A stretch of DNA of 35,224 nucleotides from Opitutaceae bacterium. Its GTDB lineage: Bacteria; Verrucomicrobiota; Verrucomicrobiia; Opitutales; Opitutaceae. Positions 3,117 through 35,170 of this stretch are shown in pieces. Made by a program: the position numbers and the translations under genes. Below the pieces are notes generated by a model, which saw nothing but the letters and a program-made list of their open reading frames with translations, ran no database searches and was not told where the DNA came from. Within the stretch, counting starts at the first letter, position 1. Each line of letters starts with the position of its first letter. The stretch is from contig SYGN01000243.1 of assembly GCA_005799525.1 (NCBI GenBank), forward strand, positions 1-35,224, read 5' to 3'.

Positions 3117-4160
3117 ATGGCCGTGATGGCCCGAAGCGACCAACGTCCGGTGACGGTGCACATGATCGCGGAGCACGTTGGCGTCTCGGCGTCAGCCGTT
3201 TCGACCGTGCTCGCAGATCGCCACGAGGAGCGCCGGCTTGCCCCGGCGACGGTCGAAAAGATTCGCAAGGCGGTGCGCGACCTCGGCTACGTGCCGAACG
3301 TGGCCGCGCGCCGCCTGCGGGCGCACGATCCGGAGGTGCATCACATTGAACTCGGGATTCTGACTTCGTTCGAGGCGCCGCTGTTTCTTGTGAGCCGGGT
3401 GCTGCGGCAGGTCCAGCGGATGGCGGATGCGCGCACGGGACCGGGCCGCAATTTTTCCGTGTCGATCGCGATGTTTCATGCGGGCCGGCTGCGTGAGATG
3501 GCGGGGCTGCTCAACGCGAGTCGCTTCAATGGCGTGGTGATTACGAACACGCTGCCGGAGGACGACGCGTTTCTCGCGACAACGACGCTGCCCTATGCGG
3601 TCGTCGTGCTCGGGCGACGCTTGCCGAACTATTGCTGCGTACTCGATACGCCGGGCGAGAGCGGACGCCGCGCGGCGGAAATTCTCCTCGGGCGCGGTTG
3701 CCGTCGGCCCGTGGTGTTGACGCCGGCGCTGCTCACGCAAAGCACCGCCGAGCGCGCGGAGGCGTTTTGCACGACGGTGCGGGCCCAGACCGGCACGGAA
3801 CCGGCGCGGGTGGTGGCGGAGGGTTTTACGCCGACGCACGGGGCCGATGCGTTGCGGGCGCATCTCGGCGCGGGCCGCGGTTGCGACGGACTCTACGCGG
3901 TGACTGACGGTCTCGCGCTCGGCGCGTATCAGGCGATCAAGGATGCGGGCCGCACGATCCCCAAAGACATCGCGGTCGTCGGGGTCGGAGACCACGAGCA
4001 TGCGGATTTCTTCGATCCGCCGCTGACCTGCGTGGGGCCGTCCAACGAGACCATCGTCGAGCAAATCGTGACGCAGCTGTTTGATTTGATGAACCGCCGC
4101 CGCGTGAAACCGCGGGAGACGTTTGTGCCGCCATCGGTGGCGATGCGCGCCTCGGCCTGA
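3117..4160 (+). CDS. LacI-family transcriptional regulator
   Basis: This is a DNA-binding repressor of the LacI/GalR family, about 347 residues from the chosen start. The N-terminal helix-turn-helix is VTVHMIAEHVGVSASAVS followed by a hinge region with LGYVPNVAARRL. The rest is a periplasmic-binding-protein-like effector domain, with FNGVVITNTLP, the repeat-subunit motif SGRRAAEILLGRG, and the late IPKDIAVVGVGD and PPLTCVGPSNETI segments. The open frame extends upstream to 3021, but the extra residues are basic and not conserved, so ATG 3117 (or ATG 3126) fits the usual distance to the HTH better. Divergent from ppk. It lies 121 bp before a TonB receptor, with a perfect palindrome in that gap, so it most likely controls the receptor and perhaps the genes after it in response to a sugar. 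The ligand cannot be told from sequence. Confidence 0.93.
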   Translation: MAVMARSDQRPVTVHMIAEHVGVSASAVSTVLADRHEERRLAPATVEKIRKAVRDLGYVPNVAARRLRAHDPEVHHIELGILTSFEAPLFLVSRVLRQVQRMADARTGPGRNFSVSIAMFHAGRLREMAGLLNASRFNGVVITNTLPEDDAFLATTTLPYAVVVLGRRLPNYCCVLDTPGESGRRAAEILLGRGCRRPVVLTPALLTQSTAERAEAFCTTVRAQTGTEPARVVAEGFTPTHGADALRAHLGAGRGCDGLYAVTDGLALGAYQAIKDAGRTIPKDIAVVGVGDHEHADFFDPPLTCVGPSNETIVEQIVTQLFDLMNRRRVKPRETFVPPSVAMRASA

Positions 4161-4225
4161 GCGGTGGGCGGGCCGATTTCGGGCAGGCGGCAGAATTTTC
4201 GGAGCGACAGAATTTCGCGCTTGAA

Positions 4226-4241
4226 ACTAAATCGATTTAGT
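4226..4241. promoter_or_regulatory. Probable LacI-family operator
   Basis: ACTAAATCGATTTAGT is a perfect 16-bp palindrome with CG at its centre and A/T-rich flanks, the classic shape of a LacI/GalR-family operator. It is the only such site seen in the gap between the LacI-type gene and TBDR 1, and sits about 40 bp before the receptor's ATG. A TTGAAA (4221-4226) that could serve as a -35 element overlaps its left edge, though no good -10 at the right spacing is evident. The assignment to this regulator is inference from position. Confidence 0.7.
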
Positions 4242-4281: not shown

Positions 4282-7221
4282 ATGAACCTGTCGACCCTAC
4301 GCCTTGCCGTGTCCCTCCGTCAGCTGGTGACGTTAATCCTTGCCTTCGCCTTCTGTGCCGCAGTCCGCGCGGCCGACGGCGCCACGCTCTCCGGCACGGT
4401 GAGCAACACCGCTACCGGAAATCTTCTCACGGGCGCCAAGGTCGAGATTCCGGCTTTGGGTCTGTCGACCTTGGCCGACAACACCGGCCGCTACGTGCTC
4501 GCCGGCGTGCCCGCGGGCACGCACGAGGTCGTCGTTTCCTACACGGGGCTCGATGCGGCGCGCCAGCGCGTGACCGTCTCGGGCGGCCAGCGCGCGCAGC
4601 AGAATTTCGATCTCACGTCGGGCATCTACAAGCTCGACGCGTTTCTCGTCACCGGCGAGCGCGAGGGCGCGGCCGTCGCGATCACGGCGCAGCGCAATGC
4701 GGACAACGTGAAGAACATCGTGGCGATGGATTCGTTCGGCAATCTCCCCAACATGTCCGCCGGCGAACTCGCGGTTCGTTTGCCGGGCATCGCGGGCAAC
4801 CTCGACGAGGAGGGCAACGTCACCGGTCTCACCGTGCGCGGTATGGGGCCGACGCTGAACCGCGTCACCGTCGATGGCGGGCTGCTCTCGAACGTTGGCG
4901 GCATGAACCGGCAGTTCCAGACGCATTCGCTCACAGGGGCGATGTTCGAGCAGCTCGAGGTGATCAAGGGCCACACGCCGGACAAGGGCGCCGATTCGCT
5001 CGGCGGCACGATTAATTTCAAGACGCGTTCGCCGCTCTCCATGCGGGAAAAACGCCGCGTGACCTACAGCGCCTCCGCGCGCTGGGCACCGCCACTCACG
5101 CAGCAGATCGCGCTGCGCGAGGCGCACCGCCTGCACCCGCTCGTCAACGTGAGCTACCAGGAAGTGTTCGACACGTTTGGTGGCGAGCGGAACCTCGGCG
5201 TGGCGGTCAACACGTTCTACAGCGAAAACGTCGCGGGGTATTTTCGCACGCTGCGCGATTTCGAGAACACCACGGCGCAACCCGCCTATCTCTGGGACTA
5301 CGGCACGCAGGACGCGTTCAACAGCCGCAAGCAGGCGAGCGTGAACCTCAAGGCCGACTTCCGCCTTTCTGCCGCGACCAAGCTCTCGTTCAACACCATC
5401 TACAACGACGCCAACGAGCCCTACAACCGGCTCTACGTCACGCGCGCCTTCACCAACCAGACTGCGCCCAACGCTACCACGTCCGGCGTGGTGCCCGGCT
5501 ACACGAACCGCATCACGACGGTGCGGCCCGTGGCGACCTCGGTGATCGACGTGACGGAGACGATGTTCAGTTTTTTCAACCGCACGCGGCAGTTCGATCT
5601 CGGCGTCGAGCACACTGCCAACCGCCTCGAGCTCGATGCCAACGCGGCCTACAGCACGACGCACAACAACCTCGGCGTCGGCAACGGCGGCACGCTCACC
5701 AACCGCATCACCGGCACCGGCTGGATCCTCGACCGCACGCAGTCGGATCTTTATCCGCGCTTCCTGCCGAACGGCGGGCTCGATTTCACCAATCCAGCCA
5801 ACTACCGGCCCAACGGTTTCCTCACCACACGTAACGACGACCGCGACGTCGAGATCAAGACCGTGCGCGGCAATGTGCGCTACCAGCTTCCGATCGAGGC
5901 CACGGTTTTCCTGAAGACGGGCGGCGAGTGGCGCGAGCAGTTCGCCAAGGTCCTGAGCCGCCAGCGCCGCTGGAGCTACACCGGCACGACGGCGTTGCCG
6001 GCGGACGCTTCGATTCGCACTTGGGACGCACAGAAGACGGGCCGCCAGACTCCGCAATTTGAATCCGCCTCGCTGATCAAGGGCGAGGTGCCCGTCACCC
6101 CGTCGCTCTGGAACGAGGATCTCTATTTCAAATCGCAGACGGGTTTCACCGGCACCAACGCCGTGACCGAGACCGTCACCGCCGGCTACGTGATGGCGCA
6201 GGCCAAGCTCGGCTGGACGGGATTTCTCACCGGGGTGCGGATGGAGAAAACCGAAACCGACAGTTGGGGCTGGGTCCGCGCGCGCGTGCCGAGCCCTGCC
6301 GCGCTGCAACAGTCCGATCCCGTCGGCGCGGCCACGCGCGACTACGCCGGCAATCGTCGCACCCTTCAGGGCGACTACACGAAATCGTTTCCCAGCGCGC
6401 ACCTCACGCAGGACCTCACGCCGAATCTCAAGGCGCGGCTGAGCTGGTCCACGAGCTTCGGTCGCGCGCCGATGAACAACTTCGTCCCCAACGAGACGGT
6501 CAACGAGGTGGCGCAGACCCTCACGATCAACAACCCCAGCCTGAAGCCGCAGACCGCGAAAAACTGGGACGCGACGCTCGACTACTATTTCGAGCCCGTC
6601 GGCAATCTCTCCGTCGGCTGGTTCCACAAGGAAATTAGAGACTATCTCCTGACCGGCCAGACGACGGGCGTCATCCCGTCCGGCACCGGCAACGGCTACA
6701 ACGGAGAGTATGCGAACTTCACCACGCTCACGACGCTCAACGCCGGCACCGCTTACGTGCAGGGCTGGGAGCTGAGCTACCAGCAGCAGTTCACGTTTCT
6801 CCCCGGCCTGTTGAAGGGCCTGAGTTTCGGGGCCAACTACACGCATCTCGATACGCATGGCCGCTTCACCGGCACGGCGTCGCTCGTCACGGGCCAGGTC
6901 CCGGGCTTCATCCCGAAGACCGGCAACGTGAACTTGTCGTGGCGCTACCGAGCGTTCAACGCCCGCGTGCTCGTCAACTACACCGGCGACTACAACACCG
7001 CCTTCACCGCCGCCACGCTCGGCCGCAACCTCTACCAGTTCAAACGCACGATCACCAACGTCGGCCTCGGCTATCAGCTCACGCCGCGCGTCGGCTTCAC
7101 GCTCGATGTCACCAACCTGTTCAACGAACCGATCTCCAACTACCGCGGCAGTCCCGATCAGATTCAGCGCACAGTGATCACCGGCACGACGGTGAACCTC
7201 GGGATGACGGGCCGGTTCTGA
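4282..7221 (+). CDS. TonB-dependent receptor with carboxypeptidase-regulatory-like domain (TBDR 1)
   Basis: This 979-residue outer-membrane receptor probably carries a glycan fragment across the outer membrane using TonB energy. A signal peptide (residues 1-30, ending FCAAVRA) is followed by a carboxypeptidase-regulatory-like beta-sandwich (about 35-112: LSGTVSNTATGNLLTGAKVE, DNTGRYVLAGVPAGTHEV). A TonB-box-like stretch LDAFLVTGEREG comes next, then the plug (about 130-250: ADNVKNIVAMDSFGNLP, LTVRGMGPTLNRVTVDGG, DSLGGTINFKTRS), then the 22-strand barrel, which ends in Phe (GMTGRF) as these proteins require. The ATG at 4282 is chosen because the signal peptide starts there; an in-frame TTG at 4246 would put the signal peptide inside. 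No Shine-Dalgarno sequence precedes it. No SusD partner follows. It is the first gene after the palindromic operator, with the FG-GAP protein 54 bp downstream. Its barrel resembles that of TBDR 3 more than that of TBDR 2 by eye. Substrate unknown. Confidence 0.95.
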   Translation: MNLSTLRLAVSLRQLVTLILAFAFCAAVRAADGATLSGTVSNTATGNLLTGAKVEIPALGLSTLADNTGRYVLAGVPAGTHEVVVSYTGLDAARQRVTVSGGQRAQQNFDLTSGIYKLDAFLVTGEREGAAVAITAQRNADNVKNIVAMDSFGNLPNMSAGELAVRLPGIAGNLDEEGNVTGLTVRGMGPTLNRVTVDGGLLSNVGGMNRQFQTHSLTGAMFEQLEVIKGHTPDKGADSLGGTINFKTRSPLSMREKRRVTYSASARWAPPLTQQIALREAHRLHPLVNVSYQEVFDTFGGERNLGVAVNTFYSENVAGYFRTLRDFENTTAQPAYLWDYGTQDAFNSRKQASVNLKADFRLSAATKLSFNTIYNDANEPYNRLYVTRAFTNQTAPNATTSGVVPGYTNRITTVRPVATSVIDVTETMFSFFNRTRQFDLGVEHTANRLELDANAAYSTTHNNLGVGNGGTLTNRITGTGWILDRTQSDLYPRFLPNGGLDFTNPANYRPNGFLTTRNDDRDVEIKTVRGNVRYQLPIEATVFLKTGGEWREQFAKVLSRQRRWSYTGTTALPADASIRTWDAQKTGRQTPQFESASLIKGEVPVTPSLWNEDLYFKSQTGFTGTNAVTETVTAGYVMAQAKLGWTGFLTGVRMEKTETDSWGWVRARVPSPAALQQSDPVGAATRDYAGNRRTLQGDYTKSFPSAHLTQDLTPNLKARLSWSTSFGRAPMNNFVPNETVNEVAQTLTINNPSLKPQTAKNWDATLDYYFEPVGNLSVGWFHKEIRDYLLTGQTTGVIPSGTGNGYNGEYANFTTLTTLNAGTAYVQGWELSYQQQFTFLPGLLKGLSFGANYTHLDTHGRFTGTASLVTGQVPGFIPKTGNVNLSWRYRAFNARVLVNYTGDYNTAFTAATLGRNLYQFKRTITNVGLGYQLTPRVGFTLDVTNLFNEPISNYRGSPDQIQRTVITGTTVNLGMTGRF

Positions 7222-7226
7222 AAAGT

Positions 7227-7275: not shown

Positions 7276-9342
7276 ATGAATTCCCTTCGCCTTCACCTCG
7301 CTGCGTTGCTGTTGTTCTCCCCGTTGGCCGCGTTCGCCGCCGAAAAAGGGCGGGTCACAGACCTGCTGCACCGCGCCGCCGCTCCCGCCGAAGGCACGAT
7401 GCCGCGCCTCGCCCACAACAACCCCGGCACGCTCGCCGACCTCGGCGTCGGCCTGTGGGCCTGGCCGCTGCCGATCGACTATAACAAGGATGGGCTGATG
7501 GACCTCGTCGTCGTGTGCACGGACAAACCTTACAACGGCACGTGGTTTTTCGAGAACAGCGGGCAGGTCGATGCACAGCTCAAGCTCCCGATCTTCAAGC
7601 CCGCCGTCTTCATCGGCAAATCCGCGCCTTCGGTCGGCATCTCCTACGTCACGGGCAAACCCGTCGTCACCGCGACCGCCAGCGTCAAGACCGACGCCGC
7701 CTACGACTATCGCGGCAACACCTACCCTGATTTTGTGAATTCGCAGTTCACGAAACCCCAGCAGCTCGGCGTGCCGGAGAAGATTCTCACCGAGCCCGGC
7801 AACATCCGTCAAAACCAGTGGCAGCTCGTGGACTTTGATGGCGACGGTGCGCTCGACGTCTCGGTCGGCATCGATTTTTGGGGCGACTTCGGCGCGCTCA
7901 ACGGCGGCGAGGGTGCGTTCAACGCCAAGGGCGAGTGGACCCGAGGTAAATTGCGCGGCTATGTCTATGTCATCCGCAACACCGGCACCACGGAGAAGCC
8001 GGTCTACGCCGCGCCGTTTCGCCTGCAGGCCGGCGGCAAAGACGTCGATCCCTTCGGCATGCCTTCGCCGTGCTGGGGCGACTTCGACGGTGACGGCGAC
8101 CTTGATCTGATCACCGGCGAGTTCCTCGACGGCTTCACGTTTTTCGAAAACACCGGCACGCGCACGAAACCCGTCTACGCCGCCGGCCGAGCGCTGCTGC
8201 ACGCGGGGCTTCCGCTCAAGATGGACCTTTGCATGATCACGCCCACAGCGGTGGATTTCGACGGGGACGGCGATCTCGATTTAGTCGTCGGCGATGAGGA
8301 TGGCCGCGTGGCCTTCATCGAGCACACCGGAAAAACCGTCGCGGGAATGCCGCAGTTTCTGGCGCCGCGTTATTTTCGGCAATTTGCCGCCGACGTAAAA
8401 TTCGGCGCCCTCGCCACGCCTTACGCCGTCGATTGGGACGGCGACGGCGATGAAGATCTTATCTCGGGCAACACCGCCGGTTACATCGGATTCATCGAAA
8501 ATCTCGGCGGCACCCCCGTGCGCTGGGCCGCGCCGCGCTACCTCAGTGCCGCGGGCAAACTCATCCGCGAGATGGCCGGCCCCAATGGCTCGATCCAAGG
8601 CCCGGCCGAGCCGAAGTGGGGCTACTCCATTCTCAGTGTGGCCGATTGGGACGGTGACAGTCTGCCCGACATCATGACCAACGGCATCTGGGGCAAAGTC
8701 GTTTGGTATAAAAATATCGGCACGCGCACGGCACCGCGCCTTGCCGCCGCGCAGCCCGTCGCGCTCGCGCTCCCACCGGGTGCGCCGAATCCGGCGCCGG
8801 CGTGGAATTGGTGGAAACCCACAGCCAACGAACTCGTTTCCCAGTGGCGCACCACGCCGCAGATGATCGACTGGAACGGTGACGGCCTGATGGACCTCGT
8901 GATGTCCGACGCCGAGGGCTACCTCGCATTCTACGAGCGGAAACGCGCCGCCGACGGCAAACTGGCGCTGCTCCCGCCCCGGCGGGTTTTCTGGAGCGAA
9001 GGCGCCAGTGTTTTCACGAGCAACGGCCAGCCGCAAAACAAAGAGTCCGGCCTGCTCCGTCTCAACGACGGCGTCTACGGCCGCGGCGGGCGCCGCACGT
9101 TTTGCATCGCGGATTGGGATGGCGACGGAAAGCCGGACCTCCTGCTCAACAGCGTCCCGAACGTAAATTTCTTCCGCGCCACCGGTCGCGACGCGCAAGG
9201 CCGCTGGACCTTCAAAGACGAGGGGCCGGTGAGCACGCACGTCCTCGCCGGCCACGCGACGAAGCCGACCTACTTCGCCACCATGCGCGAACTCCTCATC
9301 GGTGCCGAGGACGGCTTCATCTATCGCGTCCCGCAAAAGTAG
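7276..9342 (+). CDS. Secreted FG-GAP/VCBS-repeat beta-propeller protein
   Basis: This 688-residue protein has a signal peptide (LAALLLFSPLAAFAA, residues 8-22) and at least eight calcium-binding-type Asp loops of the FG-GAP/VCBS kind. They read DYNKDGLMDLVV (68-79), DFDGDGALDVSV, DFDGDGDLDLITG, DFDGDGDLDLVVGDE, DWDGDGDEDLISG, DWDGDSLPDIM, DWNGDGLMDLVMSD and DWDGDGKPDLLLN. Such repeats build an integrin-alpha-like propeller that binds ligands or calcium outside the cytoplasm. No catalytic motif is seen. It sits between TBDR 1 and the first sulfatase, so it may act as a surface glycan-binding protein in the role SusD plays elsewhere; this is inference. The ATG at 7276 is chosen because it directly precedes the signal peptide; the leader is C-rich without a Shine-Dalgarno sequence. 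Codons for residues 24-29 overlap an inverted copy of the REP-like element upstream. Confidence 0.88.
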   Translation: MNSLRLHLAALLLFSPLAAFAAEKGRVTDLLHRAAAPAEGTMPRLAHNNPGTLADLGVGLWAWPLPIDYNKDGLMDLVVVCTDKPYNGTWFFENSGQVDAQLKLPIFKPAVFIGKSAPSVGISYVTGKPVVTATASVKTDAAYDYRGNTYPDFVNSQFTKPQQLGVPEKILTEPGNIRQNQWQLVDFDGDGALDVSVGIDFWGDFGALNGGEGAFNAKGEWTRGKLRGYVYVIRNTGTTEKPVYAAPFRLQAGGKDVDPFGMPSPCWGDFDGDGDLDLITGEFLDGFTFFENTGTRTKPVYAAGRALLHAGLPLKMDLCMITPTAVDFDGDGDLDLVVGDEDGRVAFIEHTGKTVAGMPQFLAPRYFRQFAADVKFGALATPYAVDWDGDGDEDLISGNTAGYIGFIENLGGTPVRWAAPRYLSAAGKLIREMAGPNGSIQGPAEPKWGYSILSVADWDGDSLPDIMTNGIWGKVVWYKNIGTRTAPRLAAAQPVALALPPGAPNPAPAWNWWKPTANELVSQWRTTPQMIDWNGDGLMDLVMSDAEGYLAFYERKRAADGKLALLPPRRVFWSEGASVFTSNGQPQNKESGLLRLNDGVYGRGGRRTFCIADWDGDGKPDLLLNSVPNVNFFRATGRDAQGRWTFKDEGPVSTHVLAGHATKPTYFATMRELLIGAEDGFIYRVPQK
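7346..7361. repeat. Inverted partial copy of the REP-like element, inside a gene
   Basis: These 16 bases (AAGGGCGGGTCACAGA) are the exact reverse complement of 7235-7250, 95 bp upstream. The copy is only the first part of the palindrome and breaks off after GACC. It encodes the residues directly after the predicted signal-peptide cleavage site of the FG-GAP protein (KGRVTD), a place where extra residues would be tolerated. Confidence 0.5.
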
Positions 9343-10839: not shown

Positions 10840-10862
10840 CGTGCATGAGTTGTTTTTTCCCC

Positions 10863-22059: not shown

Positions 22060-22095
22060 TTCGTAACCCCCTTTTTGTCCTGCCAACCTCCGTTT

Positions 22096-26045: not shown

Positions 26046-26059
26046 AAATTCCGGAATTT
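26046..26059. promoter_or_regulatory. Perfect palindrome upstream of TBDR 3, possible operator
   Basis: AAATTCCGGAATTT is a perfect 14-bp palindrome in the 96-bp gap between the fecR-like gene and TBDR 3, about 67 bp before the receptor's ATG. With a central CG and A/T-rich arms it resembles a LacI-family operator. The arms differ from those of the site at 4226, so it may serve another regulator. An ECF-type promoter could not be assigned nearby with confidence. Confidence 0.45.
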
Positions 26060-26125
26060 GGTCTAGTGAGAGTGCGCGGTTGACTCGTGGTAGTAGGCGC
26101 GGGCCGTAGTCGCCGCCACCCACCC

Positions 26126-29100
26126 ATGAACAAACCGGTCAAAGCATTCGCCTCTCTCCTTCGTTGGTTAAACTGCGCGTTCATGGTTGCGGTGTGCTTC
26201 AGCGGGCCGATGCGCGCCGCGGACCAGGCCAAGAAGTCGATCGAGATTCCCGCCGGAGAGGCGCTCGCCACGCTCAAGCAGTTCAGCACCCAATCGGGTG
26301 CGCAATTGCTCTATTCTGCACGTGAGGTTGAAGGCGTGCGGACGAACGCGGCGAAGGGCCAGTTTGCGCCGCGCGAGGCGCTGGAGCGCCTGCTGCAAGG
26401 CACGGCATTGGTGGCCGATCAAGATGAACGCACGGGGGCGTTGACGGTTCGCTCGGGGGCCCGTGCCGTGCCCGCGCCCATGGAGCGCTCGGGGGCGTCG
26501 GTCGGCCTTTTCGGCGGGCTGAGCGGCCAGATCAGCAGTGCGGCCACCCGAAATACCTTGGAAGGGGTCGTGATTGAGCTGCCGGGATGGCGGCGCCAGG
26601 TGCTCACCGACCGCAACGGTCGCTTCGAATTTTCCTCCGTGCCCGCCGGACCGGTCGACGTGGCGATTTCCCATCTGGGCCTGGCGACGGTCCGACGAAC
26701 CGTGACGATTGCCGGTGGCGGACGCGTCACGCTTGAAGTCGCTTTGCAGGCCGAGGATGCGATCCGGTTGGAAAAGTTTGTCGTCGCCACCGAACGCGAA
26801 GGTAACGCGGCCGCCATTACCCGGCAGCGCACGGCCGACAATGTGAAGAGCGTCGTGGCGATGGATGCGCTGGGGATACTGAGCAACGACAACGCCGGTG
26901 AATTGCTCGTGCAACTCGCGGGGATCAGCGGCGAGCCGGATGACGTGGGGAATGTGTTCAACGTGCGCATTCGCGGCATTTCGTCGGAACAGAATTCCGT
27001 GACGGTCGATGGCAACAAAATGGCCAGCTCCGGCGGCATGGCGCGCAATTTCCGTCTCGGGGCGATCAGCGGGGCTTTGTTCGATGAGGTGGAAGTGACG
27101 AAGGCGTCGACCCCGGAAATGGACGCCGACTCTTTGGGTGGTGGGGTGAATTTCAAAACGCGCAGTGCGTTGGCTTCGCGGGACCGGCGGCGCGGGACGT
27201 ATCGCCTGGGCGTGCGCTGGCTGCCGCCGTTCACGGACCAGACGGTTTACCGGCAGGACCACCGCACCGCGCCGCTGTTCAACCTTAGCTACACCCAGAT
27301 TTTCGATGTCGGCGGCGGGGAACGGAACCTCGGGGTGACGCTGACCGCGAGCGGGAGCCAGAACAACCGCGGCGCGAAAGTGACGCAGCAGGAGCGCCTC
27401 GACACGACCAGTGGGCCGAGCTACGTCCGGACCTTCGTCGCCAACGACGTCTACAATGCCGGCCGACAGGAGAGCTACGGCGTGCGTTTTGACTACAAAA
27501 TCTCCGATCGGAGCAGCGTCTATTTTACCACGAAAATAAGCGATGCCTCGCAGCGGACCCTGGCCGAACTCAAAACGACCGCGTCGGTCAACACGCCCCG
27601 CGTGCTGGCCGTGGACGCAGGCGGACAGCCGACCGGACCCGGGCAGATCTATCCGGACTTCACGGATACCGTAACGCGCGTGCGGGCGCAGCCGACGAAT
27701 TTTTTCGAGATCAACACCTTCACCCGGGCGTTTTTCGACCTGCAGCGGCTGTTCAACGTCGGCGGCCAATATCAGGCCGGATGGCTCAAGCTCGACTACG
27801 ATGGCGGGCTCACGAGCAGCAGCGTGATCCAATTCGACGGACCTTATCCGAAGAAGGCCTACCCCGGCGGCGGGCTGTTCACGATGCGGGTGACCAACCT
27901 CGGTTGGCGCTATGATGAGACGGCGTCGGTCACCGATCCGGTCTTTGTTCAGACCGAGGGCGCGAGCATTTTCGATCCGCGCAGCTACGGGACCGGGGTG
28001 CTCACGCGGCGGGACAACAAACGCTTCACCCGGATCGCCACGGCCTCGGGCGCCGCGACGGTCAATCTGCCCTGGCAATTTTTGACGCAACTCAAGGCCG
28101 GTGGCCGATACCGCGTGAACCACATCGATATCACGGGCGGCAACCGCACATTCAACTACGCGGGGCCCGACGGCATCCGCGGCGGCGCCGGGGCGGCAGA
28201 TGATCTGCCGGGGTTGATCGATCCGAGTGCCTCTCTGAACAACTCTTTTTGGCAGGCGCGCGGACGAATTCCCTTTCCGACGTTGGGTGCGTTGGTGGTG
28301 GATATGCGCGAAAATCCGCGGCGGTGGGTCGAGGATCAGTATGCGAGTGAGGCGCAGAAATATACCGGCACGAGCAGCCTGGATGAAACCCTCACGGCGG
28401 CCTTCGCCCAGTCGCGCGTGCAACTGGGGAAACTGCGCGTCCTGTCGGGCGTCCGTCTGGAGCAGGTCGACGTCGAGGCCTTTGCCTCCATCAAGGGAGT
28501 GAAGAAACCCGCGACGCCGATCACCGACCCGCGTGAACTGGCGCGTTTCGACTACAACAACCCGCGGGTCGGAACCGGTACGACGCGCTCATGGTTTCCG
28601 AGCGCCCACCTCACCTATCAGTTCACCAAAGGCCTGCAGGCCCGGGCCAGCTGGTCGAACGGTATCGGCCGGCCGCCGACGGCCAATTTGCTGCCGGTGG
28701 AAGCGGTCAACGAGGCGGCGGAGACGCTCACGATCAATAATCAGGCCATCAAGCCGCAGTTCACCAAGAATTACGACGCAACCCTGGAATACTACTTCGA
28801 GCCGGTCGGCATGGTCTCGGTCGGCTATTTCCAGAAAAACATCCGCGACTACATTGTGAGTAATGTTCTCGGACTCGTGCCGAGCGGCGCGGACAACGGC
28901 TACAACGGGGACTACGCGGGCTATACGCTGCGCAGCCAGACCAACGCCGGCGGGGCGCGTATCGACGGCTGGGAGTTTTCTTACCAGCAACAGCTCACGT
29001 TTCTACCGGGGCTCCTGCGCGGGCTGGGCGTCTTTGCGAACTATACGAGGCTCCGCACCGAGGGAAATTTCGGCGGGGCCACGGTGCGGCGTACCGGGCA

Positions 29101-29422
29101 GGTGGCCGGCTTTGTGCCGCAGTCCGGCAACGCGGGCTTCACCTACAAATACCGCCGGGTGGGCGTCCGGGTGTCGGCCAACTACACGGGCGAAAACCTC
29201 ACCGACTTTTCGACGACGGAGGCGTTGTTGCGGTATCGCGCGACGCGGACGCTGGTCAACGTGGGGACGACGTTGACCCTTCGTCCGGGCACTGAGTTCT
29301 TCTTCAATGTCGAGAATCTCTTCGATGAGCCGCAACAGTGGTATCGCTACAAGCCGAGTCGTCGGCAGGGCACCAACTTTAACGGGGTCGGCGTCTTTTT
29401 CGGTGTCGACGGGCGGTTTTGA
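26126..29422 (+). CDS. TonB-dependent transducer with STN domain (TBDR 3)
   Basis: This 1098-residue outer-membrane receptor has a signalling extension. The signal peptide covers residues 1-31 (LLRWLNCAFMVAVCFSGPMR). The STN domain at about 36-112 (SIEIPAGEALATLKQFSTQS, FAPREALERLLQGTALVA) is the part that contacts a FecR-type protein. A shortened regulatory-like sandwich follows (about 140-208: NTLEGVVIELPGWRRQVLTD, RFEFSSVPAGPVDVAI), then the TonB-box-like LEKFVVATEREG, the plug (TADNVKSVVAMDALGILSND, RIRGISSEQNSVTVDGNKM, DSLGGGVNFKTRSAL), and a barrel ending in GVDGRF. It shares EREGNAAAITRQR with TBDR 2 and much of the barrel end with TBDR 1. Only this receptor has STN, and only it follows a sigma/FecR pair. 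ATG 26126 is fixed by the signal peptide. Sulfatase C begins 26 bp later. Confidence 0.95.
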   Translation: MNKPVKAFASLLRWLNCAFMVAVCFSGPMRAADQAKKSIEIPAGEALATLKQFSTQSGAQLLYSAREVEGVRTNAAKGQFAPREALERLLQGTALVADQDERTGALTVRSGARAVPAPMERSGASVGLFGGLSGQISSAATRNTLEGVVIELPGWRRQVLTDRNGRFEFSSVPAGPVDVAISHLGLATVRRTVTIAGGGRVTLEVALQAEDAIRLEKFVVATEREGNAAAITRQRTADNVKSVVAMDALGILSNDNAGELLVQLAGISGEPDDVGNVFNVRIRGISSEQNSVTVDGNKMASSGGMARNFRLGAISGALFDEVEVTKASTPEMDADSLGGGVNFKTRSALASRDRRRGTYRLGVRWLPPFTDQTVYRQDHRTAPLFNLSYTQIFDVGGGERNLGVTLTASGSQNNRGAKVTQQERLDTTSGPSYVRTFVANDVYNAGRQESYGVRFDYKISDRSSVYFTTKISDASQRTLAELKTTASVNTPRVLAVDAGGQPTGPGQIYPDFTDTVTRVRAQPTNFFEINTFTRAFFDLQRLFNVGGQYQAGWLKLDYDGGLTSSSVIQFDGPYPKKAYPGGGLFTMRVTNLGWRYDETASVTDPVFVQTEGASIFDPRSYGTGVLTRRDNKRFTRIATASGAATVNLPWQFLTQLKAGGRYRVNHIDITGGNRTFNYAGPDGIRGGAGAADDLPGLIDPSASLNNSFWQARGRIPFPTLGALVVDMRENPRRWVEDQYASEAQKYTGTSSLDETLTAAFAQSRVQLGKLRVLSGVRLEQVDVEAFASIKGVKKPATPITDPRELARFDYNNPRVGTGTTRSWFPSAHLTYQFTKGLQARASWSNGIGRPPTANLLPVEAVNEAAETLTINNQAIKPQFTKNYDATLEYYFEPVGMVSVGYFQKNIRDYIVSNVLGLVPSGADNGYNGDYAGYTLRSQTNAGGARIDGWEFSYQQQLTFLPGLLRGLGVFANYTRLRTEGNFGGATVRRTGQVAGFVPQSGNAGFTYKYRRVGVRVSANYTGENLTDFSTTEALLRYRATRTLVNVGTTLTLRPGTEFFFNVENLFDEPQQWYRYKPSRRQGTNFNGVGVFFGVDGRF

Positions 29423-29448
29423 AATCCGATTTTAAGGTCGCCTCCGCT

Positions 29449-30828: not shown

Positions 30829-30848
30829 CCTCGGTCCTCTCCCTCTCC

Positions 30849-32300
30849 GTGTTTCGTTTCCCCCTCCCCGCGCTCCTTGGACTGGCCGTCGTTTTTGGGT
30901 CCGCCGCGCCCGCTGCCGCGCGGCCCAACGTGCTCTTGATCGCCGCCGACGATCTCCGGGCCGACCTCGGGAGCTACGGCCATCCCGAGGTGAAGACGCC
31001 GCACCTCGATGCTCTCGCGCGGCGTGGCGTCGTCTTCGAGCGCGCCTATTGCCAGCAGGCGGTCTGCAATCCCTCGCGCGCCTCCGTCCTCACCGGCCGC
31101 CGGCCCGATACGTTGCGCGTTTGGAATCTCCAGACGCATTTTCGTGAAACGCTGCCGGACGTCGTGACTCTGCCGCAGGCCTTTAAGCAAGCCGGCTACG
31201 TTAGCATTGGTCTCGGCAAACTCTTTCACAACCAGAGTGGCCCGCGGCATCCGCCGTTTCCTTTTGCTGACCCGCCTTCGTGGTCGCGCCCGCCGCGTTT
31301 TGCCGAGGGCGCTCATTGGCAGGACTGGGTGGTCCCCGGCGATGCCGCCGGCCCCAAGGCCAAGGTTGGACCCGTGCAGTGCCTCGACGTGCCTGATGAG
31401 GCTTATTTTGACGGCCAGATCGCCACCGCGGCCGTCACCGTGCTCCGCGAGTTCGCCTCGTCCCGTGAGCCGTTCTTTCTCGGCGTGGGTTTCTGGAAAC
31501 CGCACCTGCCGTTCAATGCGCCGAAGCGCTACTGGGATATCTACGACCGCGCAAGGCTCGCGCCGCCCGACCCCGCTGGCGCGCCCGTCGGCGCGCCCGC
31601 GCTCGCCGCGCACGACTGGCAGGAACTCCGCGGCTATGGCGGCGTGCCAAAGAGCGGCCCGCTCACGCCCGCCCAGACGTCCGAACTCCGCCACGGTTAT
31701 CTCGCGGCGATCAGTTTTCTGGATGCGCAGGTTGGCCGCGTCCTCGCCGAGCTGGAGCGCAGCGGTCTCGCCGCCAACACCGTCGTCGTCTTCTGGAGCG
31801 ACCACGGTTTTCACCTCGGCGAACACGACCTCTGGGCCAAGACCTCCAACTACGAGCTCGATGCCCGGGTGCCCCTGATCGTGGCCGCGCCCGGCGTCGC
31901 CCGCGCCGGCGGTCGTACCTCTGGCCTGACCGAGCTCATCGACGTCTATCCGACGCTCACGGCGCTCGCCGGGCTCGCAGCCGACCCCGCCCTCGAAGGC
32001 CGCAGCCTCGTGCCGCAGCTGCGCGATCCGGCCGGGCCCGGCAAGCCGTTCGCGCTATCGCAACATCCTCGTCCCGCCTACGGCGCACCGATGCACATGG
32101 GCTATGCGCTTCGCGAGGACCGTTTCCGGTACGTCGAATGGCGTGAACTCGCGACCGGTGCGGTGGCGGCCCGCGAACTTTACGACCACCGCACCGATCC
32201 GCGCGAAACGGTGAATTGCGCCGCCGACCCGGTGCATCGCGAGGCCATGGAAAAACTCGCCGCGCAACTCTCCATCGTGGCTCCCGCCGCCCGCCGATGA
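30849..32300 (+). CDS. Type I (formylglycine) sulfatase, iduronate-2-sulfatase-like (sulfatase D)
   Basis: This protein of about 483 residues from GTG 30849 has an early hydrophobic signal (PLPALLGLAVVFGSAAPAAA). Asp34-Asp35 lie in IAADDLRADLGSYGHPEVKT and formylglycine Cys73 lies in CNPSRASVLTGRRP. Features of the iduronate-2-sulfatase/choline-sulfatase-like branch are DDLRADLGSYGHP, DTLRVWNL, SIGLGKLFHNQSG, GFWKPHLPFNAPKRYWDIYD and WSDHGFHLGEHDLWAKTSNY (Asp318-His319). The start is the weakest point: there is no ATG in the first 30 codons, so GTG 30849 is taken because it begins the signal peptide. The gene overlaps sulfatase E by ATGA. If the iduronate-type reading is right, the enzyme may act on a 2-O-sulfated uronic or other acidic sugar, but this branch is broad and the substrate is not settled. 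Confidence 0.92.
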   Translation: MFRFPLPALLGLAVVFGSAAPAAARPNVLLIAADDLRADLGSYGHPEVKTPHLDALARRGVVFERAYCQQAVCNPSRASVLTGRRPDTLRVWNLQTHFRETLPDVVTLPQAFKQAGYVSIGLGKLFHNQSGPRHPPFPFADPPSWSRPPRFAEGAHWQDWVVPGDAAGPKAKVGPVQCLDVPDEAYFDGQIATAAVTVLREFASSREPFFLGVGFWKPHLPFNAPKRYWDIYDRARLAPPDPAGAPVGAPALAAHDWQELRGYGGVPKSGPLTPAQTSELRHGYLAAISFLDAQVGRVLAELERSGLAANTVVVFWSDHGFHLGEHDLWAKTSNYELDARVPLIVAAPGVARAGGRTSGLTELIDVYPTLTALAGLAADPALEGRSLVPQLRDPAGPGKPFALSQHPRPAYGAPMHMGYALREDRFRYVEWRELATGAVAARELYDHRTDPRETVNCAADPVHREAMEKLAAQLSIVAPAARR

Positions 32301-33778
32301 GCGCGGCTGGCCTTCGCCTCCTCCGGCGGCTGCCCGGGCTGATCATCGCCTGGCTCGGGCTCGCCGCGTGGCCGCTCTCCGCCGCCACGGGCGCGGCACG
32401 GCTGAACATCGTCTTTATCCTCGCCGACGATCTCGGCTGGCGCGACCTGCGCTGCACCGGCCATGAAATTCATGACACACCGCACCTCGACCGCCTTGGT
32501 CGCGACGGCATGCGTTTGACGCAGGGTTACGCCGCAGCGCCGATCTGCTCTGCTTCGCGCGCCGCACTGCTCACGGGCCGTTCGCCGGTGCGGCTCGGTT
32601 TTGAGTTTGTCACGAAATTGCCGACGGCCAAACGCCCGGCCGGCCATGCTCTCGTCGGCCCGCCGTATCCGCTCAACCTGCCGCTGGCCGAAGTGACGCT
32701 CGGCGAAGTCCTCGGTGGCGCAGGCTACGCGACGGGCTACTTCGGCAAGTGGCACGTAGGCGAGCACACCGGCGGCTACCTGGGCTGGTCGGCCACGCAC
32801 GGCCCGCTGCAACAAGGCTACGCCGAGGGCGACCCGGATTTTGGCAACCACACCTACGCCTACCGTGAGCGTCCTGCTTTGAAGACCGAGCTGCTGGCCG
32901 CGGGCGATTACGGACGGGACACACTCACCGAAAAAGCGATCGCGTTCCTGCGCACGCGACGCGATCGCCCGTTTTTTCTGCACGTGGCGCACTACTTCGT
33001 GCACGATCCGATCCACAGCCGCGCGGCGTGGCTCATCGAAAAATACCGCGCCCGCTATCCCACTGGTACCGATCCGCGCCGCCTCGAATATGCCGCGATG
33101 GTCGAAACCCTCGACCACTACGTCGGCCAACTGCTCCGCACTCTCGACGAACTCGGGCTGCGGGAAAACACGCTCGTAGTTTTCACTTCGGACAACGGCG
33201 GCCATCCCGAATACGCGGCGAACGGTCCGCTCCGCGGCAGCAAGTGGAACCTCCATGAAGCTGGCTTGCGCGTTCCGTGGCTGGTGCGCTGGCCCTCCCA
33301 TATCCGGGCGGGTGCGACGAGCGACGCGCCCTTCATCGGGACCGACCTTTTGCCCACGCTCGCGGCCGCCTCCGGGGCGCTACTGCCGGGCCGCGTCGCG
33401 CTCGACGGTCGCAACGTCCTTCCGCTCTGGCGTGGCGCGGTGCCGACTGCCGCCGAACGGGAGCGGCCGCTCGTCTGGCACTTTCCTTACTATCATCCGG
33501 AAACTGGCTATGCCGACGCTTTGCCGAACATTGGCGTCTCCGATTTCGCCGTGAGCCAAACTCGCCCGCAATCCGCGCTGCGTGTTGGTGACTGGAAGCT
33601 CGTTCACTTCTACGATGGAGACCGCGACGAGCTTTACCATCTCGCCGCCGATCCCGGTGAACAGCGTGATCTCGCCGCCCGCGAACCGCTCCGTGCGAAG
33701 GTGCTCAGGCACCGACTCGACTCGGAGCTCCACGCGATGAACGCGCGTTTCCCGGTGGCCGCGGCGAGATTGCCCTGA
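32297..33778 (+). CDS. Type I (formylglycine) sulfatase, S1 family (sulfatase E)
   Basis: This 493-residue sulfatase has a signal peptide of about 30 residues (GLIIAWLGLAAWPLSAA). Asp44-Asp45 lie in IVFILADDLGWRDLRCTG. Formylglycine Cys84 lies in CSASRAALLTGRSP, the CxAxR form seen also in sulfatase A. Lys151 lies in FGKWHVGEHTGGY, and TSDNGGHPEYAANGPLRGSK carries Asp299-Asn300. FFLHVAHYFVHDPIHSR and HEAGLRVPWLVRWP are typical of the family. ATG 32297 overlaps the stop of sulfatase D (ATGA), so the two are probably coupled in translation. The C-terminal DWKLVHFYDGDRDELYHLAA is standard. It ends 48 bp before the DUF3748 gene. Confidence 0.94.
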   Translation: MSAAGLRLLRRLPGLIIAWLGLAAWPLSAATGAARLNIVFILADDLGWRDLRCTGHEIHDTPHLDRLGRDGMRLTQGYAAAPICSASRAALLTGRSPVRLGFEFVTKLPTAKRPAGHALVGPPYPLNLPLAEVTLGEVLGGAGYATGYFGKWHVGEHTGGYLGWSATHGPLQQGYAEGDPDFGNHTYAYRERPALKTELLAAGDYGRDTLTEKAIAFLRTRRDRPFFLHVAHYFVHDPIHSRAAWLIEKYRARYPTGTDPRRLEYAAMVETLDHYVGQLLRTLDELGLRENTLVVFTSDNGGHPEYAANGPLRGSKWNLHEAGLRVPWLVRWPSHIRAGATSDAPFIGTDLLPTLAAASGALLPGRVALDGRNVLPLWRGAVPTAAERERPLVWHFPYYHPETGYADALPNIGVSDFAVSQTRPQSALRVGDWKLVHFYDGDRDELYHLAADPGEQRDLAAREPLRAKVLRHRLDSELHAMNARFPVAAARLP

Positions 33779-33826
33779 GTCTATTCCACTGTGTTTTTCA
33801 CGCGCCTTGCTACGATGGTCCACACC

Positions 33827-35170
33827 ATGAAGACACTCGGAATGATCGGCCTGACGTCCCTCGCGTTGGCGCAGGAACGCCAGCTCACGCATGCGCCGTA
33901 CGGCCATGTGTTGACGAATGTGAACGTGTGGTCGCCCGACAGTCGCTGGATCGTCTACGATGTTCGCACAGTTGATAGCGTGTTCGACGGCACGCGAATC
34001 GAGCAGGTCGAGGTGGCTACGGGAGAAGTGCAGACGCTCTACGAAACGAAGAACGGCACCGCGTGCGGTGTCGTCACGTATCATCCGCGGGAACCGAAAA
34101 TCGTGTTCGTTCACGGCCCGGAGCATCCGACGTCCGAGTGGAGCTACGGGATGACGCGCCGACGCGGGGTGCTCGTGGAGGTGGGGCGGCCCGGTGTGGC
34201 GCGGTCGCTCGACGCGATGAACTATGCGCCCCCGTTCACCCCGGGCGCGCTGCGTGGAGGATCGCACGTGCACGTGTTCAGTCCCGACGGCGCGTGGGTG
34301 AGCAATACCTACGAAGACGACGTGCTCGCTTGCCTCGGCGCGGCGACGGGCGAGGGGAGCGATCGCGATTTCAATCAGCGCAACATCGCCGTTTCCGTGC
34401 CCGGGCCAGCCGAGAGCGGTGTCCGCGTGGTGCGCAGCCACCCGCGCAATCACGACGGCGAATTGTTTTCGGTCGTTGTCACGCGCACGGTGAACCGGCC
34501 AAAGCCGGGCTCGGATGAAATCAGCCGCGCGTTTGAAGAGGGCTGGGTGGGCGGTGTCTCGGCCGAGGGTCGTCGCCAGCTCGTGTTTTTGGGCAACGTG
34601 ACCGCGCGCGATGGGCGCGAGCACGCGGAGGTGTTTATCGTCGAGCTGCCCGCGGACCTCACGCGCGGGGGTGCGGCTCCGCTCGAGGGAACGGCGAGGC
34701 GTCGGCCCGCGCCCCCGGCAGGCGTCGGGCAGCGGCGTCTCACGTTTACTGAAGAGCGGAAATTTCGCGGGGTGGCCGCGACGCCGCGGCACTGGCTGCG
34801 CGCGTCGCCCGACGGTTCGCAAATCGCGTTTCTAAAGATGGACGATGCGGCGGTGGTGCAGCTTTGGCTTGTCCCTCCGCGAGGCGGTGCGCTGCAGCAG
34901 ATTACGCGCAATCCATCCGGAATCGCCTCGGCGTTTACGTGGAGCCCCGATGGGCGCGCGATCGCGCATGTCATGGACGGCGGCGTGTGCGTGACCGACG
35001 TGGCGAGCGGCGCGACGCGGCGATTGACGCCGGCCAACGCGGCGCCGGCGCTACCGTTCGCCTGCGTATTTTCGCCGGACGGGCGGCACATTGCCTTCAT
35101 GCGGAGTGTGGCGAATGGCGGTGGAGTCTTCACGCAAATCTTCGCTGTCGCGGTGGCTTCGCGCGAGTGA
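33827..35170 (+). CDS. DUF3748 TolB-like propeller protein
   Basis: This 447-residue protein from ATG 33827 has a short signal peptide (MKTLGMIGLTSLALA). It resembles the DUF3748 family (E. coli YidR-like): QLTHAPYGHVLTNVNVWSPD, SRWIVYDVRTVDSVFDGTRI and FSPDGAWVSNTYEDD near the start, and TolB-like propeller blades late in the chain (SPDGSQIAFLKMDD, FTWSPDGRAIAHV, VFSPDGRHIAFM). No catalytic site can be named. From memory, E. coli yidR also lies close to a sulfatase gene (yidJ) and its putative maturase (yidF), which fits its place here at the end of a sulfatase run; its role in sulfoglycan use is unproven. Starts at GTG 33791 or ATG 33815 would put residues before the signal peptide and are less likely. 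The remaining 54 bases of the window show no complete gene. Confidence 0.82.
   Translation: MKTLGMIGLTSLALAQERQLTHAPYGHVLTNVNVWSPDSRWIVYDVRTVDSVFDGTRIEQVEVATGEVQTLYETKNGTACGVVTYHPREPKIVFVHGPEHPTSEWSYGMTRRRGVLVEVGRPGVARSLDAMNYAPPFTPGALRGGSHVHVFSPDGAWVSNTYEDDVLACLGAATGEGSDRDFNQRNIAVSVPGPAESGVRVVRSHPRNHDGELFSVVVTRTVNRPKPGSDEISRAFEEGWVGGVSAEGRRQLVFLGNVTARDGREHAEVFIVELPADLTRGGAAPLEGTARRRPAPPAGVGQRRLTFTEERKFRGVAATPRHWLRASPDGSQIAFLKMDDAAVVQLWLVPPRGGALQQITRNPSGIASAFTWSPDGRAIAHVMDGGVCVTDVASGATRRLTPANAAPALPFACVFSPDGRHIAFMRSVANGGGVFTQIFAVAVASRE

What the first reader, a model, noticed from the sequence alone, without database searches (positions are those of the whole stretch)
3117..35170. A 32-kb same-direction locus that combines sulfatases, sialidase-like propellers, three SusD-less TonB receptors and PSCyt/DUF1501 proteins
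Seen: 18 genes in a row on one strand with gaps mostly under 60 bp and three ATGA overlaps. They encode five exported sulfatases, three TBDRs, a FG-GAP protein, two sialidase-superfamily proteins, an aldolase, an MFS carrier and two regulatory modules. Known: each family is linked with glycan breakdown or uptake except PSCyt/PSD1 and DUF1501. Inference: this is a polysaccharide-utilisation locus of an unusual type for a sulfated glycan with a terminal acidic sugar. The lack of any SusD, endo-acting glycoside hydrolase or polysaccharide lyase in the window suggests that it works on short or already trimmed chains, or that other enzymes lie elsewhere.
Basis: partly seen in the sequence, partly recalled or inferred. 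Interest (0 to 1): 0.75.

Follow-up and report, generated by a model that had tools for sequence, protein, structure and literature searches.

The report
Sugar-acid feeding locus with sulfatase cassettes
A bacterium whose nearest relatives come largely from lakes carries a long run of genes for eating a complex sugar coat; its conserved heart looks built to clip off and burn an unusual acidic sugar (my best guess is Kdo, not sialic acid), and the eye-catching sulfatases are add-ons that close relatives can lack.

Summary
The window is a whole contig, so the right end is open. The order recurs in a same-genus genome, split over two contigs. "Sulfated-glycan PUL" is half right. Near ppk1, two same-genus genomes have just LacI-TBDR-FG-GAP-aldolase-MFS-BNR-DUF3748, without sulfatase, PSCyt, DUF1501 or sigma/FecR. 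So the core is a sugar-acid module; two cassettes (9385-21049, 24423-33778) carry the rest. The BNR proteins have a sialidase fold but an altered active site (Glu to Gln). NanE is absent in 12 of 12 genomes, so N-acetylneuraminate is unlikely. DUF3748 is 46% identical to E. coli YidR (galacturonate/gluconate phenotype). In relatives the aldolase lies near a ribulokinase/pentulose kinase (7 of 29 genomes) and sometimes a fucose-isomerase-like gene, predicting a pentose product, hence an 8-carbon keto-deoxy acid such as Kdo. A uronate/aldonate is the main rival. Sulfatase-PSCyt neighbourhoods and SusCD-less loci of Verrucomicrobiota are in print.

The parts
3117..4160 (+). LacI-family regulator (core)
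   Evidence: PF00356/PF13377; 93% in G008 (L033), 80% in G002 (L035)
4282..7221 (+). TonB-dependent receptor 1, no STN hit (core)
   Evidence: PF00593/PF07715, TIGR01782 377 bits vs cut-off 310
7276..9342 (+). FG-GAP repeat protein with signal-like start (core); next to TBDR1, aldolase or BNR in relatives
   Evidence: PF13517; 51-82% identity to 16 homologues; no sequence hit in PDB; AF2 pLDDT 83, only weak fold matches, some to PVL/PLL-type lectins
9385..10839 (+). Sulfatase 1 (cassette 1)
   Evidence: PF00884; motif CSAAR
10845..12260 (+). Sulfatase 2 (cassette 1)
   Evidence: PF00884; motif CSPTR; nearest solved: exo-4S-kappa-carrageenan sulfatase 6prm, E 8e-63
12296..15268 (+). TonB-dependent receptor 2, no STN hit (cassette 1)
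   Evidence: PF00593, TIGR01782 386.5 bits
15285..18500 (+). PSCyt1-PSCyt2-Laminin_G_3-PSD1 protein (cassette 1)
   Evidence: PF07635, PF07583, PF13385, PF07587
18497..19978 (+). DUF1501 protein (cassette 1)
   Evidence: PF07394 E 4.5e-148; ATGA overlap
20021..21049 (+). BNR_2 sialidase-like protein a (cassette 1 here; before the aldolase in several relatives)
   Evidence: PF13088 E 1.6e-87; 69% identical to copy b
21063..21998 (+). DHDPS-family aldolase, NAL/YagE-like, no signal-like start (core)
   Evidence: PF00701; Lys165 and Tyr137 kept, no Arg in YNFPELTG; best solved relative YagE 3n2x
22075..23349 (+). MFS carrier, nearest subfamily D-galactonate type, below cut-off (core; an SSF symporter stands in the cluster instead in some relatives)
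   Evidence: PF07690; TIGR00893 121 bits vs cut-off 395
23366..24409 (+). BNR_2 sialidase-fold protein b (core)
   Evidence: PF13088; AF2 pLDDT 90.6, top PDB fold 1eur sialidase TMq 0.78
24423..24965 (+). ECF-type sigma factor (cassette 2)
   Evidence: PF04542/PF08281
24962..26029 (+). FecR-type anti-sigma protein (cassette 2)
   Evidence: PF04773, DUF4880; ATGA overlap
26126..29422 (+). TonB-dependent receptor 3 with STN signalling domain (cassette 2)
   Evidence: PF07660, PF00593; TIGR01782 321.7 bits
29449..30828 (+). Sulfatase 3 (cassette 2)
   Evidence: PF00884; nearest solved 6prm E 2e-60; motif CAPAR
30849..32300 (+). Sulfatase 4 (cassette 2)
   Evidence: PF00884; nearest solved 6hhm E 7e-96, then iduronate-2-sulfatases; motif CNPSR
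32297..33778 (+). Sulfatase 5 (cassette 2; its best match is also the only sulfatase in L038, L057 and L076)
   Evidence: PF00884; motif CSASR; ATGA overlap
33815..35170 (+). DUF3748 protein, YidR homologue (core)
   Evidence: PF12566 E 1.2e-47; 46% identity over 413 columns to E. coli YidR
815..2923 (-). Polyphosphate kinase ppk1: left flank; directly beside LacI in L033, about 2 kb from it in L035
   Evidence: PF17941/PF02503/PF13090/PF13089; positions

Best explanation
This is a SusD-less, TonB-dependent carbohydrate-utilisation locus. Its conserved core handles a terminal sugar acid; lineage-specific cassettes adapt it to sulfated polymers. Proposed working order: TBDR1 (with the FG-GAP protein as likely glycan binder) imports an oligosaccharide; the periplasmic sialidase-fold BNR protein removes a terminal 2-keto-3-deoxy sugar acid; the MFS (or SSF) carrier imports it; the DHDPS-family aldolase splits it into pyruvate and an aldose. 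In some relatives the aldolase sits with a ribulokinase/pentulose kinase and a fucose-isomerase-like gene, which points to a pentose, so to an eight-carbon acid, most likely Kdo (pyruvate + D-arabinose, then D-ribulose, then D-ribulose 5-phosphate). DUF3748/YidR helps in sugar-acid use in an unknown way. Shown: gene content, order, core versus cassettes, fold, changed residue, linkage of aldolase with kinase in relatives, absence of NanE and SusD. Inferred: cell location, order of steps, keto-deoxy acid, Kdo. The Kdo step alone I put at about 0.35-0.4; core versus cassettes at about 0.9.
For: Core only, near ppk1, in two same-genus genomes (L033 = G008:C149, whose contig ends just after DUF3748; L035 = G002:C72, with flanks on both sides) and in L073. 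Aldolase and BNR co-occur: 27 of 29 aldolase-bearing versus 17 of 86 other genomes; 25 of 29 if the weak or partial BNR hits of G062 and G067 are dropped. In a clustering of ORFs around BNR in 80 named loci the aldolase family is the commonest partner (19 of 80) and it tops a Pfam tally of neighbours in the nearer set (11 of 93); two aldolase subfamilies (65-92% and 27-31% identity to the window's) occupy the place. FGGY kinases within 13 kb of the aldolase: 9 of 29 genomes, 0.79 expected. Seven of these are ribulokinase or TIGR01315 pentulose-kinase types (5 tested, all over cut-off; G014 and G062 by 68 and 71% identity); G010's is rhamnulokinase-like below cut-off and G058's was not tested. 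In G007 a ribulokinase lies between aldolase and MFS (L036). Isomerase in 27 of 29 aldolase-bearing versus 36 of 86 other genomes, and in the same stretch in L057, L181, L177 (about 14 kb off), L084 and L091. Kdo aldolase yields D-arabinose and pyruvate (PMC4412817, passage); an E. coli NAL with eight point changes is an L-KDO aldolase (PMC4016182, passage), so the fold can take eight-carbon acids; AraB phosphorylates D-ribulose, and a D-ribulokinase for D-arabinose use sits in a fucose locus (PMC12307932, passages); Kdo hydrolase is a listed GH33 activity (PMC9120202, passage). NanE 0 of 12 genomes. YidR 46%; a yidR deletion grows poorly on gluconate and galacturonate (PMC5293155, passage).
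Against: The window itself has no kinase or isomerase gene; its genome has the isomerase elsewhere (C94) and no kinase like the L057 one at E 1e-150, only 3 FGGY_C hits in all. That kinase is not associated with the aldolase genome-wide (7 of 29 versus 12 of 86, P 0.25). The 13-kb and 5-kb limits were set after seeing the distances, and related genomes are not independent. Of 40 BNR stretches fetched, 23 show no aldolase; of 80 named loci 57 show none; in the farther neighbour set DHDPS is only 2 of 88. Kinase and isomerase could serve L-arabinose or another sugar of the same polymer. The aldolase's best solved relative is YagE, annotated as 2-dehydro-3-deoxygluconate aldolase, and YidR's phenotype is on galacturonate/gluconate, which favour the uronate rival; UxaC and KduI are in 12 of 12 genomes. 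The BNR site lacks the Glu that GH33 needs, so it may not be a hydrolase at all. No activity has been measured; the export of D3748 and the role of FG-GAP are guesses.
Confidence: 0.45

Rival explanations
1. Uronate/aldonate locus: the BNR proteins release a uronic acid (as hydrolase or lyase), the carrier is a hexuronate/galactonate-type MFS, and the aldolase cleaves a 2-keto-3-deoxy-hexonate (KDG/KDGal) to pyruvate and glyceraldehyde; kinase and isomerase genes serve other sugars of the polymer.
For: YidR homologue with galacturonate/gluconate phenotype, next to dgo genes in E. coli; aldolase nearest YagE among solved structures; MFS nearest TIGR00893 D-galactonate type, below cut-off; UxaC and KduI in 12 of 12 genomes; sulfatase 4 nearest 6hhm and then iduronate-2-sulfatases.
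Against: No dehydratase, uronate isomerase or reductase among the window's scanned ORFs; in the other loci many ORFs were not scanned, so this is not excluded there. UxaC and KduI were only shown to be present in the genomes, not linked to the locus. It does not explain a ribulokinase between aldolase and MFS in G007 or the kinase linkage.
Confidence: 0.3
2. Ordinary sulfated-glycan PUL: one unit evolved for a sulfated, acid-capped glycan, with the sulfatases as essential steps.
For: Tight same-strand packing; same full order in G005, split over C161 and C165; FGE-family genes present in 4 of 4 genomes searched; sulfatase-PSCyt neighbourhoods known in the phylum.
Against: Core-only versions near ppk1 in G008 and G002, and 16 of 25 laid-out loci without a sulfatase on the core strand. 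The G005 contigs both end inside the aldolase gene and a third contig (C293) also ends there, so the join is not proven.
Confidence: 0.15
3. Classical sialic acid (N-acetylneuraminate) locus: sialidases, sialate carrier, N-acetylneuraminate lyase.
For: Sialidase fold; aldolase has GSTGE and Lys/Tyr positions like NanA; some similarity of the MFS to sialate carriers.
Against: NanE (PF04131) 0 of 12 genomes, 9 of them at least 90% complete, while 8 of 14 controls ring. The other epimerase route (PF07221; its use is recalled) is over cut-off in 3 of 12 and not found in G000, G005, G006, G007, G008. No NanK/NagA/NagB-type hit in the window. NanA Glu192 and Ser208 not kept (residue roles recalled). 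Catalytic Glu replaced by Gln in all 29 aligned sequences.
Confidence: 0.03
4. The gene set is a chance or assembly-made row of unrelated operons.
For: MAG contig, 343 contigs.
Against: Core neighbours recur in many separate assemblies, among them a one-contig genome (G071) and a named isolate record (L091, Verrucomicrobium sp. BvORR106). Among the loci examined the two cassettes occur together only in the window and, on two contigs, in G005, with part in G006.
Confidence: 0.02

Closest known systems
TonB-dependent carbohydrate-utilisation (CUT) loci of freshwater Verrucomicrobia (PMC5615132; search listing and passages seen)
   Same: TBDR genes clustered with inner-membrane carriers and sugar enzymes; sulfatase genes near PSCyt genes
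   Different: Here no recognised glycoside hydrolase; the core is BNR_2 + aldolase + YidR homologue, not pectin/xylan/fucose GHs; the terms sialidase and neuraminidase do not occur in that paper's main text
Sulfatase-rich PUL-like clusters of marine Verrucomicrobiota (PMC8857213; search listing and passages seen)
   Same: Many sulfatases, no SusCD, putative sugar carriers
   Different: The passages describe clusters around GH29 fucosidases and rhamnosidases; none here
nan sialic-acid genes (E. coli nanT-nanA-nanR)
   Same: Acid-sugar carrier + DHDPS-family aldolase; here with a sialidase-fold protein
   Different: No NanE; altered residues in both aldolase and BNR
E. coli yidR-dgo region
   Same: DUF3748 beside sugar-acid genes; MFS related to DgoT (25% over 306 columns)
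   Different: E. coli has dehydratase, kinase and phospho-aldolase there; no BNR, no TBDR
GH33 sialidase superfamily, incl. Kdo hydrolase activity
   Same: Sialidase fold; Tyr and one Arg aligned with NanB
   Different: Glu to Gln; Asp to Glu only by a very weak alignment; first Arg probably His by spacing; a second invariant Arg (R286) is not paired with R619 by the alignment

Membership tests
Sus-type PUL (Bacteroidota) | SusC/SusD pair | tested here: not met
   PF07980 in 0 of 11 genomes, Bacteroides control positive; other SusD Pfam families not searched genome-wide
TonB-dependent CUT locus | TBDR clustered with inner-membrane carrier, sugar enzymes and regulator | tested here: met
TonB-dependent CUT locus | Induction by the glycan | not testable with these tools
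   no expression data
FecI/FecR/FecA-type surface signalling | ECF sigma, FecR-like protein, receptor with STN domain in a row | tested here: met
   24423-29422
N-acetylneuraminate catabolism (nan) | NanE epimerase in the genome | tested here: not met
   0 of 12 genomes; alternative epimerase family over cut-off in 3 of 12, not in the window's genome
GH33 sialidase | Sialidase fold | tested here: met
   AF2 pLDDT 90.6; 1eur TMq 0.78
GH33 sialidase | Catalytic Glu that pairs with the nucleophile Tyr | tested here: not met
   Q212, invariant in 29 sequences, aligns with NanB E541; Y315 with Y653 and R231 with R557 (NanB residue roles recalled)
GH33 sialidase | Three-arginine carboxylate clamp | tested here: inconclusive
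   R231 pairs with R557; R286 is invariant but not paired with R619; first Arg position seems to be H40, by spacing only
DapA (4-hydroxy-tetrahydrodipicolinate synthase) | Over the TIGR00674 cut-off; carboxylate-binding Arg (role recalled) | tested here: not met
   115.9 vs 206.15 bits; YNFPELTG where E. coli DapA has YNVPSRTG
YidR (DUF3748) | Full-length similarity | tested here: met
   46% over 413 columns
Kdo catabolic pathway | Aldolase linked with ribulokinase and isomerase | tested here: inconclusive
   met in some relatives: ribulokinase/pentulose kinase within 13 kb in 7 of 29 genomes; not met in the window; no genome-wide association of that kinase
Kdo catabolic pathway | Kdo glycoside cleavage and Kdo aldolase activity | not testable with these tools
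   needs purified proteins

The most novel reading that the evidence does not exclude
The BNR_2 proteins are founders of an unrecognised, widespread family (580 relatives confirmed in a capped scan, with record titles from Verrucomicrobiota, Planctomycetota, Acidobacteriota and Cytophagales) of exo-acting enzymes that free Kdo or a close eight-carbon relative from bacterial, plant or algal glycans by a sialidase fold with an altered (Gln, probably His) active site. With the aldolase, isomerase and ribulokinase they form a dedicated route for eating Kdo, onto which lake Opitutae have bolted sulfatase cassettes.
Probability: 0.27. Interest if true: 0.75.

Novelty: new variant of a known kind. 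Interest (0 to 1): 0.5.

Why it matters
Kdo is in most Gram-negative outer membranes and in some plant and algal walls (general knowledge), yet I found no paper in the held open-licence library on a catabolic operon for it (3 papers; passages of two seen, listing only of the third; none on this. Listings showed none either). If the reading is right, lake bacteria have a dedicated way to recycle this sugar, and a large family that looks like sialidases in environmental genomes does something else. Even if the sugar is a uronate, the core-versus-cassette picture shows which genes of a sulfatase-rich locus are the constant part and gives a small, testable set (seven genes in G008).

Tried and rejected
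Sialic acid: rejected on epimerase absence and residues. DapA-type lysine synthesis: below cut-off, different residues. Promoter/terminator scans gave no clear excess of promoter-like sites (2 against 1.3, 0 against 1.5) and only a slight excess of terminator-like ones (18 against 12.8, 17 against 12.9), so no operon borders could be set. FG-GAP: no PDB sequence hit; weak fold matches only, TMq 0.40 or less in the 50 rows shown, some to fungal and Photorhabdus lectins, nothing useful in the viral library; role left open. Sulfatase substrates: nearest solved relatives named for sulfatases 2, 3 and 4; 1 and 5 not searched in the PDB; no S1 subfamily assigned. Isomerase: no PDB hit, and no NCBIfam hit for the two members scanned or the one. 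Paper searches for the BNR/aldolase pair gave none or nothing on point in the listings. Genome-wide kinase association tested and not found.

Rows left out: of the 69 BNR places I fetched 40 stretches, which cover 42 of the 44 best rows (the other two are the window's own). Of 247 neighbour ORFs listed I passed 181, leaving out mostly short ones and the Opitutae loci L076-L078. In one search only 59 of 80 BNR ORFs fell into the main BNR cluster, probably because crude ORF starts upset the length test, so its counts are likely lower bounds.


Full report
What is there. The window is one whole contig (G000:C206, 35,224 bp) of a 4.7-Mb, 84%-complete MAG. Left of the locus lies ppk1 on the minus strand (815-2923). 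From 3117 to 35170 nineteen genes run on the plus strand: LacI, TBDR1, FG-GAP, sulfatases 1 and 2, TBDR2, PSCyt1/2-LamininG3-PSD1, DUF1501, BNR_2 a, DHDPS-family aldolase, MFS, BNR_2 b, ECF sigma, FecR, STN-TBDR3, sulfatases 3, 4, 5, DUF3748. Fifteen of 18 gaps are under 60 bp and three are ATGA overlaps. All five sulfatases have a Cys-type formylglycine motif, and FGE-family genes exist in the genome. No GH/PL family was hit among the 20 scanned window ORFs; SusD was found in 0 of 11 genomes. The closest named relatives are Opitutae MAGs, some with Baikal or Lac Pavin in their titles.

Core and cassettes. I compared window proteins by tblastn with 40 stretches of related genomes, with 80 named loci and with 17 further stretches, and laid 25 loci out in register. 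In the same-genus genomes G008 (L033, ppk1 directly beside LacI) and G002 (L035, ppk1 about 2 kb from LacI) the locus is only LacI, TBDR1, FG-GAP, aldolase, MFS, BNR b, DUF3748; the G008 contig ends there, G002 goes on with a BD-FAE esterase gene. The MAG locus L073 repeats this without LacI in the stretch. In the window two blocks are added: between FG-GAP and aldolase (9385-21049: sulfatases 1, 2, TBDR2, PSCyt, DUF1501, BNR a) and between BNR b and DUF3748 (24423-33778: sigma, FecR, TBDR3, sulfatases 3-5). G005 has both blocks in the same order on C161 and C165, but both contigs end inside the aldolase gene and a third contig (C293, L190) ends there too, so the join is likely, not proven. 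G006 has sulfatases 3-5 without sigma/FecR/TBDR3 (L032). Of the 25 loci, 9 have a sulfatase on the core strand and 16 have none; stretches differ in length, many are cut by contig ends, and five of the rows come from two genomes.

The BNR family. The two window copies are 69% identical, so this is not a recent tandem copy. The AF2 model of copy b (pLDDT 90.6) matches sialidases best (1eur, TMq 0.78, 18% identity). Profile alignment to pneumococcal NanB puts R231 on R557, Y315 on the nucleophile Y653, and Q212 on the catalytic E541; it does not pair R286 with R619. A very weak pairwise alignment (0.1 bits) puts E62 on D270 of the GGT motif; H40 falls where the first arginine should be, by spacing only (roles of NanB residues recalled). 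H40, E62, Q212, R231, R286 and Y315 are invariant in all 29 aligned sequences. So the site is conserved, not decayed, and differs from GH33. The capped public scan confirmed 580 relatives.

Who goes with it. In a clustering of ORFs around BNR in 80 named loci, the DHDPS family is the commonest partner (19 of 80; 15 within 4 kb), then FG-GAP (11), MFS (10), sulfatase (10), DUF3748 (6). A Pfam tally of neighbours gives DHDPS first in the nearer set (11 of 93) and weakly in the farther set (2 of 88, sulfatase 6 of 88): the partnership fades with distance. By tblastn 17 of 40 fetched stretches and 23 of 80 named loci hold an aldolase, in the 80 of two subfamilies (8 at 65-92%, 15 at 27-31% identity); 23 and 57 hold none. 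Across 115 genomes (window's included) the aldolase ortholog is in 29, BNR in 44, both in 27; two of the 27 BNR hits (G062, G067) are distant or partial. The carrier is MFS in some loci and an SSF symporter in others.

What the aldolase makes. It is not DapA (below cut-off, no Arg in the motif) and differs from NanA at the Glu192 and Ser208 positions. NanE is absent in 12 of 12 genomes; the other epimerase family is over cut-off in 3 of 12 and not in the window's genome. In L057 (G071) the core continues into an FGGY kinase (TIGR01315, 673 bits, cut-off 409) and a gene whose L091 homologue matches PF02952 fucose isomerase. Similar kinases lie within 13 kb of the aldolase in G014, G026, G053, G062 and G067. 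In G007, same genus, a ribulokinase (PRK04123, 629 bits, cut-off 428) sits between aldolase and MFS; its longest ORF starts 14 bp before the aldolase stop, but the family match begins at residue 22, so overlap of the real genes is open. Counting all FGGY genes, 9 of 29 genomes have one within 13 kb against 0.79 expected; within 5 kb 6 against 0.32 (limits set after seeing the data, genomes related). Of the 9, G010's is rhamnulokinase-like below cut-off and G058's was not tested. The isomerase is in 27 of 29 aldolase genomes and 36 of 86 others; the L057-type kinase itself shows no genome-wide association (7 of 29, 12 of 86, P 0.25). A pentulose kinase after a pyruvate aldolase suggests a pentose product, so an eight-carbon acid. 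Kdo aldolase gives D-arabinose and pyruvate (PMC4412817, passage); an E. coli NAL with eight point changes is an L-KDO aldolase (PMC4016182, passage); D-arabinose use through a D-ribulokinase in a fucose locus, and AraB acting on D-ribulose, are documented (PMC12307932, passages). That TIGR01315 enzymes are D-ribulokinases is recalled; the paper (Singh 2017) is not held.

The counter-signal. DUF3748 is 46% identical to E. coli YidR, which lies next to the dgo genes; a yidR deletion grows poorly on gluconate and galacturonate, and a passage on YidK and YidR together lists Kdo among the most changed metabolites, without saying clearly for which mutant (PMC5293155, passages). The aldolase's nearest solved relative is YagE, annotated as 2-dehydro-3-deoxygluconate aldolase. 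UxaC and KduI are in 12 of 12 genomes. So a uronate or aldonate is the strongest rival.

Known or new. Sulfatase genes near PSCyt genes and TBDR-based loci are described for freshwater Verrucomicrobia (PMC5615132, passages), the absence of SusCD for marine ones (PMC8857213, passages). What I did not find in the held library is a catabolic operon for Kdo or any paper on the BNR-aldolase pair. I file the locus as a new variant of a known kind; the possible new enzyme family and pathway carry the interest.

Noticed in passing
L031 (G000:C232, 4945 bp): A second MFS-BNR b pair (89% and 87%) elsewhere in the same genome, followed by unrelated ORFs (their names by eye only).
   Followed up: partly
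L036 (G007:C472) 1745-3391: Ribulokinase gene between aldolase and MFS inside the core of a same-genus genome.
   Followed up: yes
L190 (G005:C293): A second, different version of the locus in G005: FG-GAP, TBDR, two sulfatases, a second propeller-like family and aldolase.
   Followed up: no
L091 11552-12760, L039 14447-15667: Another BNR_2 protein next to the core; the L091 member also matches PF24067 (BT_1020-like N-terminal propeller), 28.0 bits against a cut-off of 27; a possible link to RG-II enzymes (recalled).
   Followed up: partly
L145 6715-9915: A GH78-type rhamnosidase directly before the BNR gene; its cluster occurs in 4 of 80 loci, all on the same strand as BNR. Rhamnose caps Kdo in RG-II (recalled).
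   Followed up: no
L035 5417-6325, also L073 and L038: A BD-FAE esterase gene follows DUF3748; predicted next gene beyond the window's right end.
   Followed up: partly
L062 6490-7227 and L183: RraA-like gene next to FG-GAP in two core loci.
   Followed up: no
window 7276-9342: The FG-GAP protein is strongly conserved (51-82% to 16 homologues) for a supposed binding protein, and may be an enzyme.
   Followed up: partly
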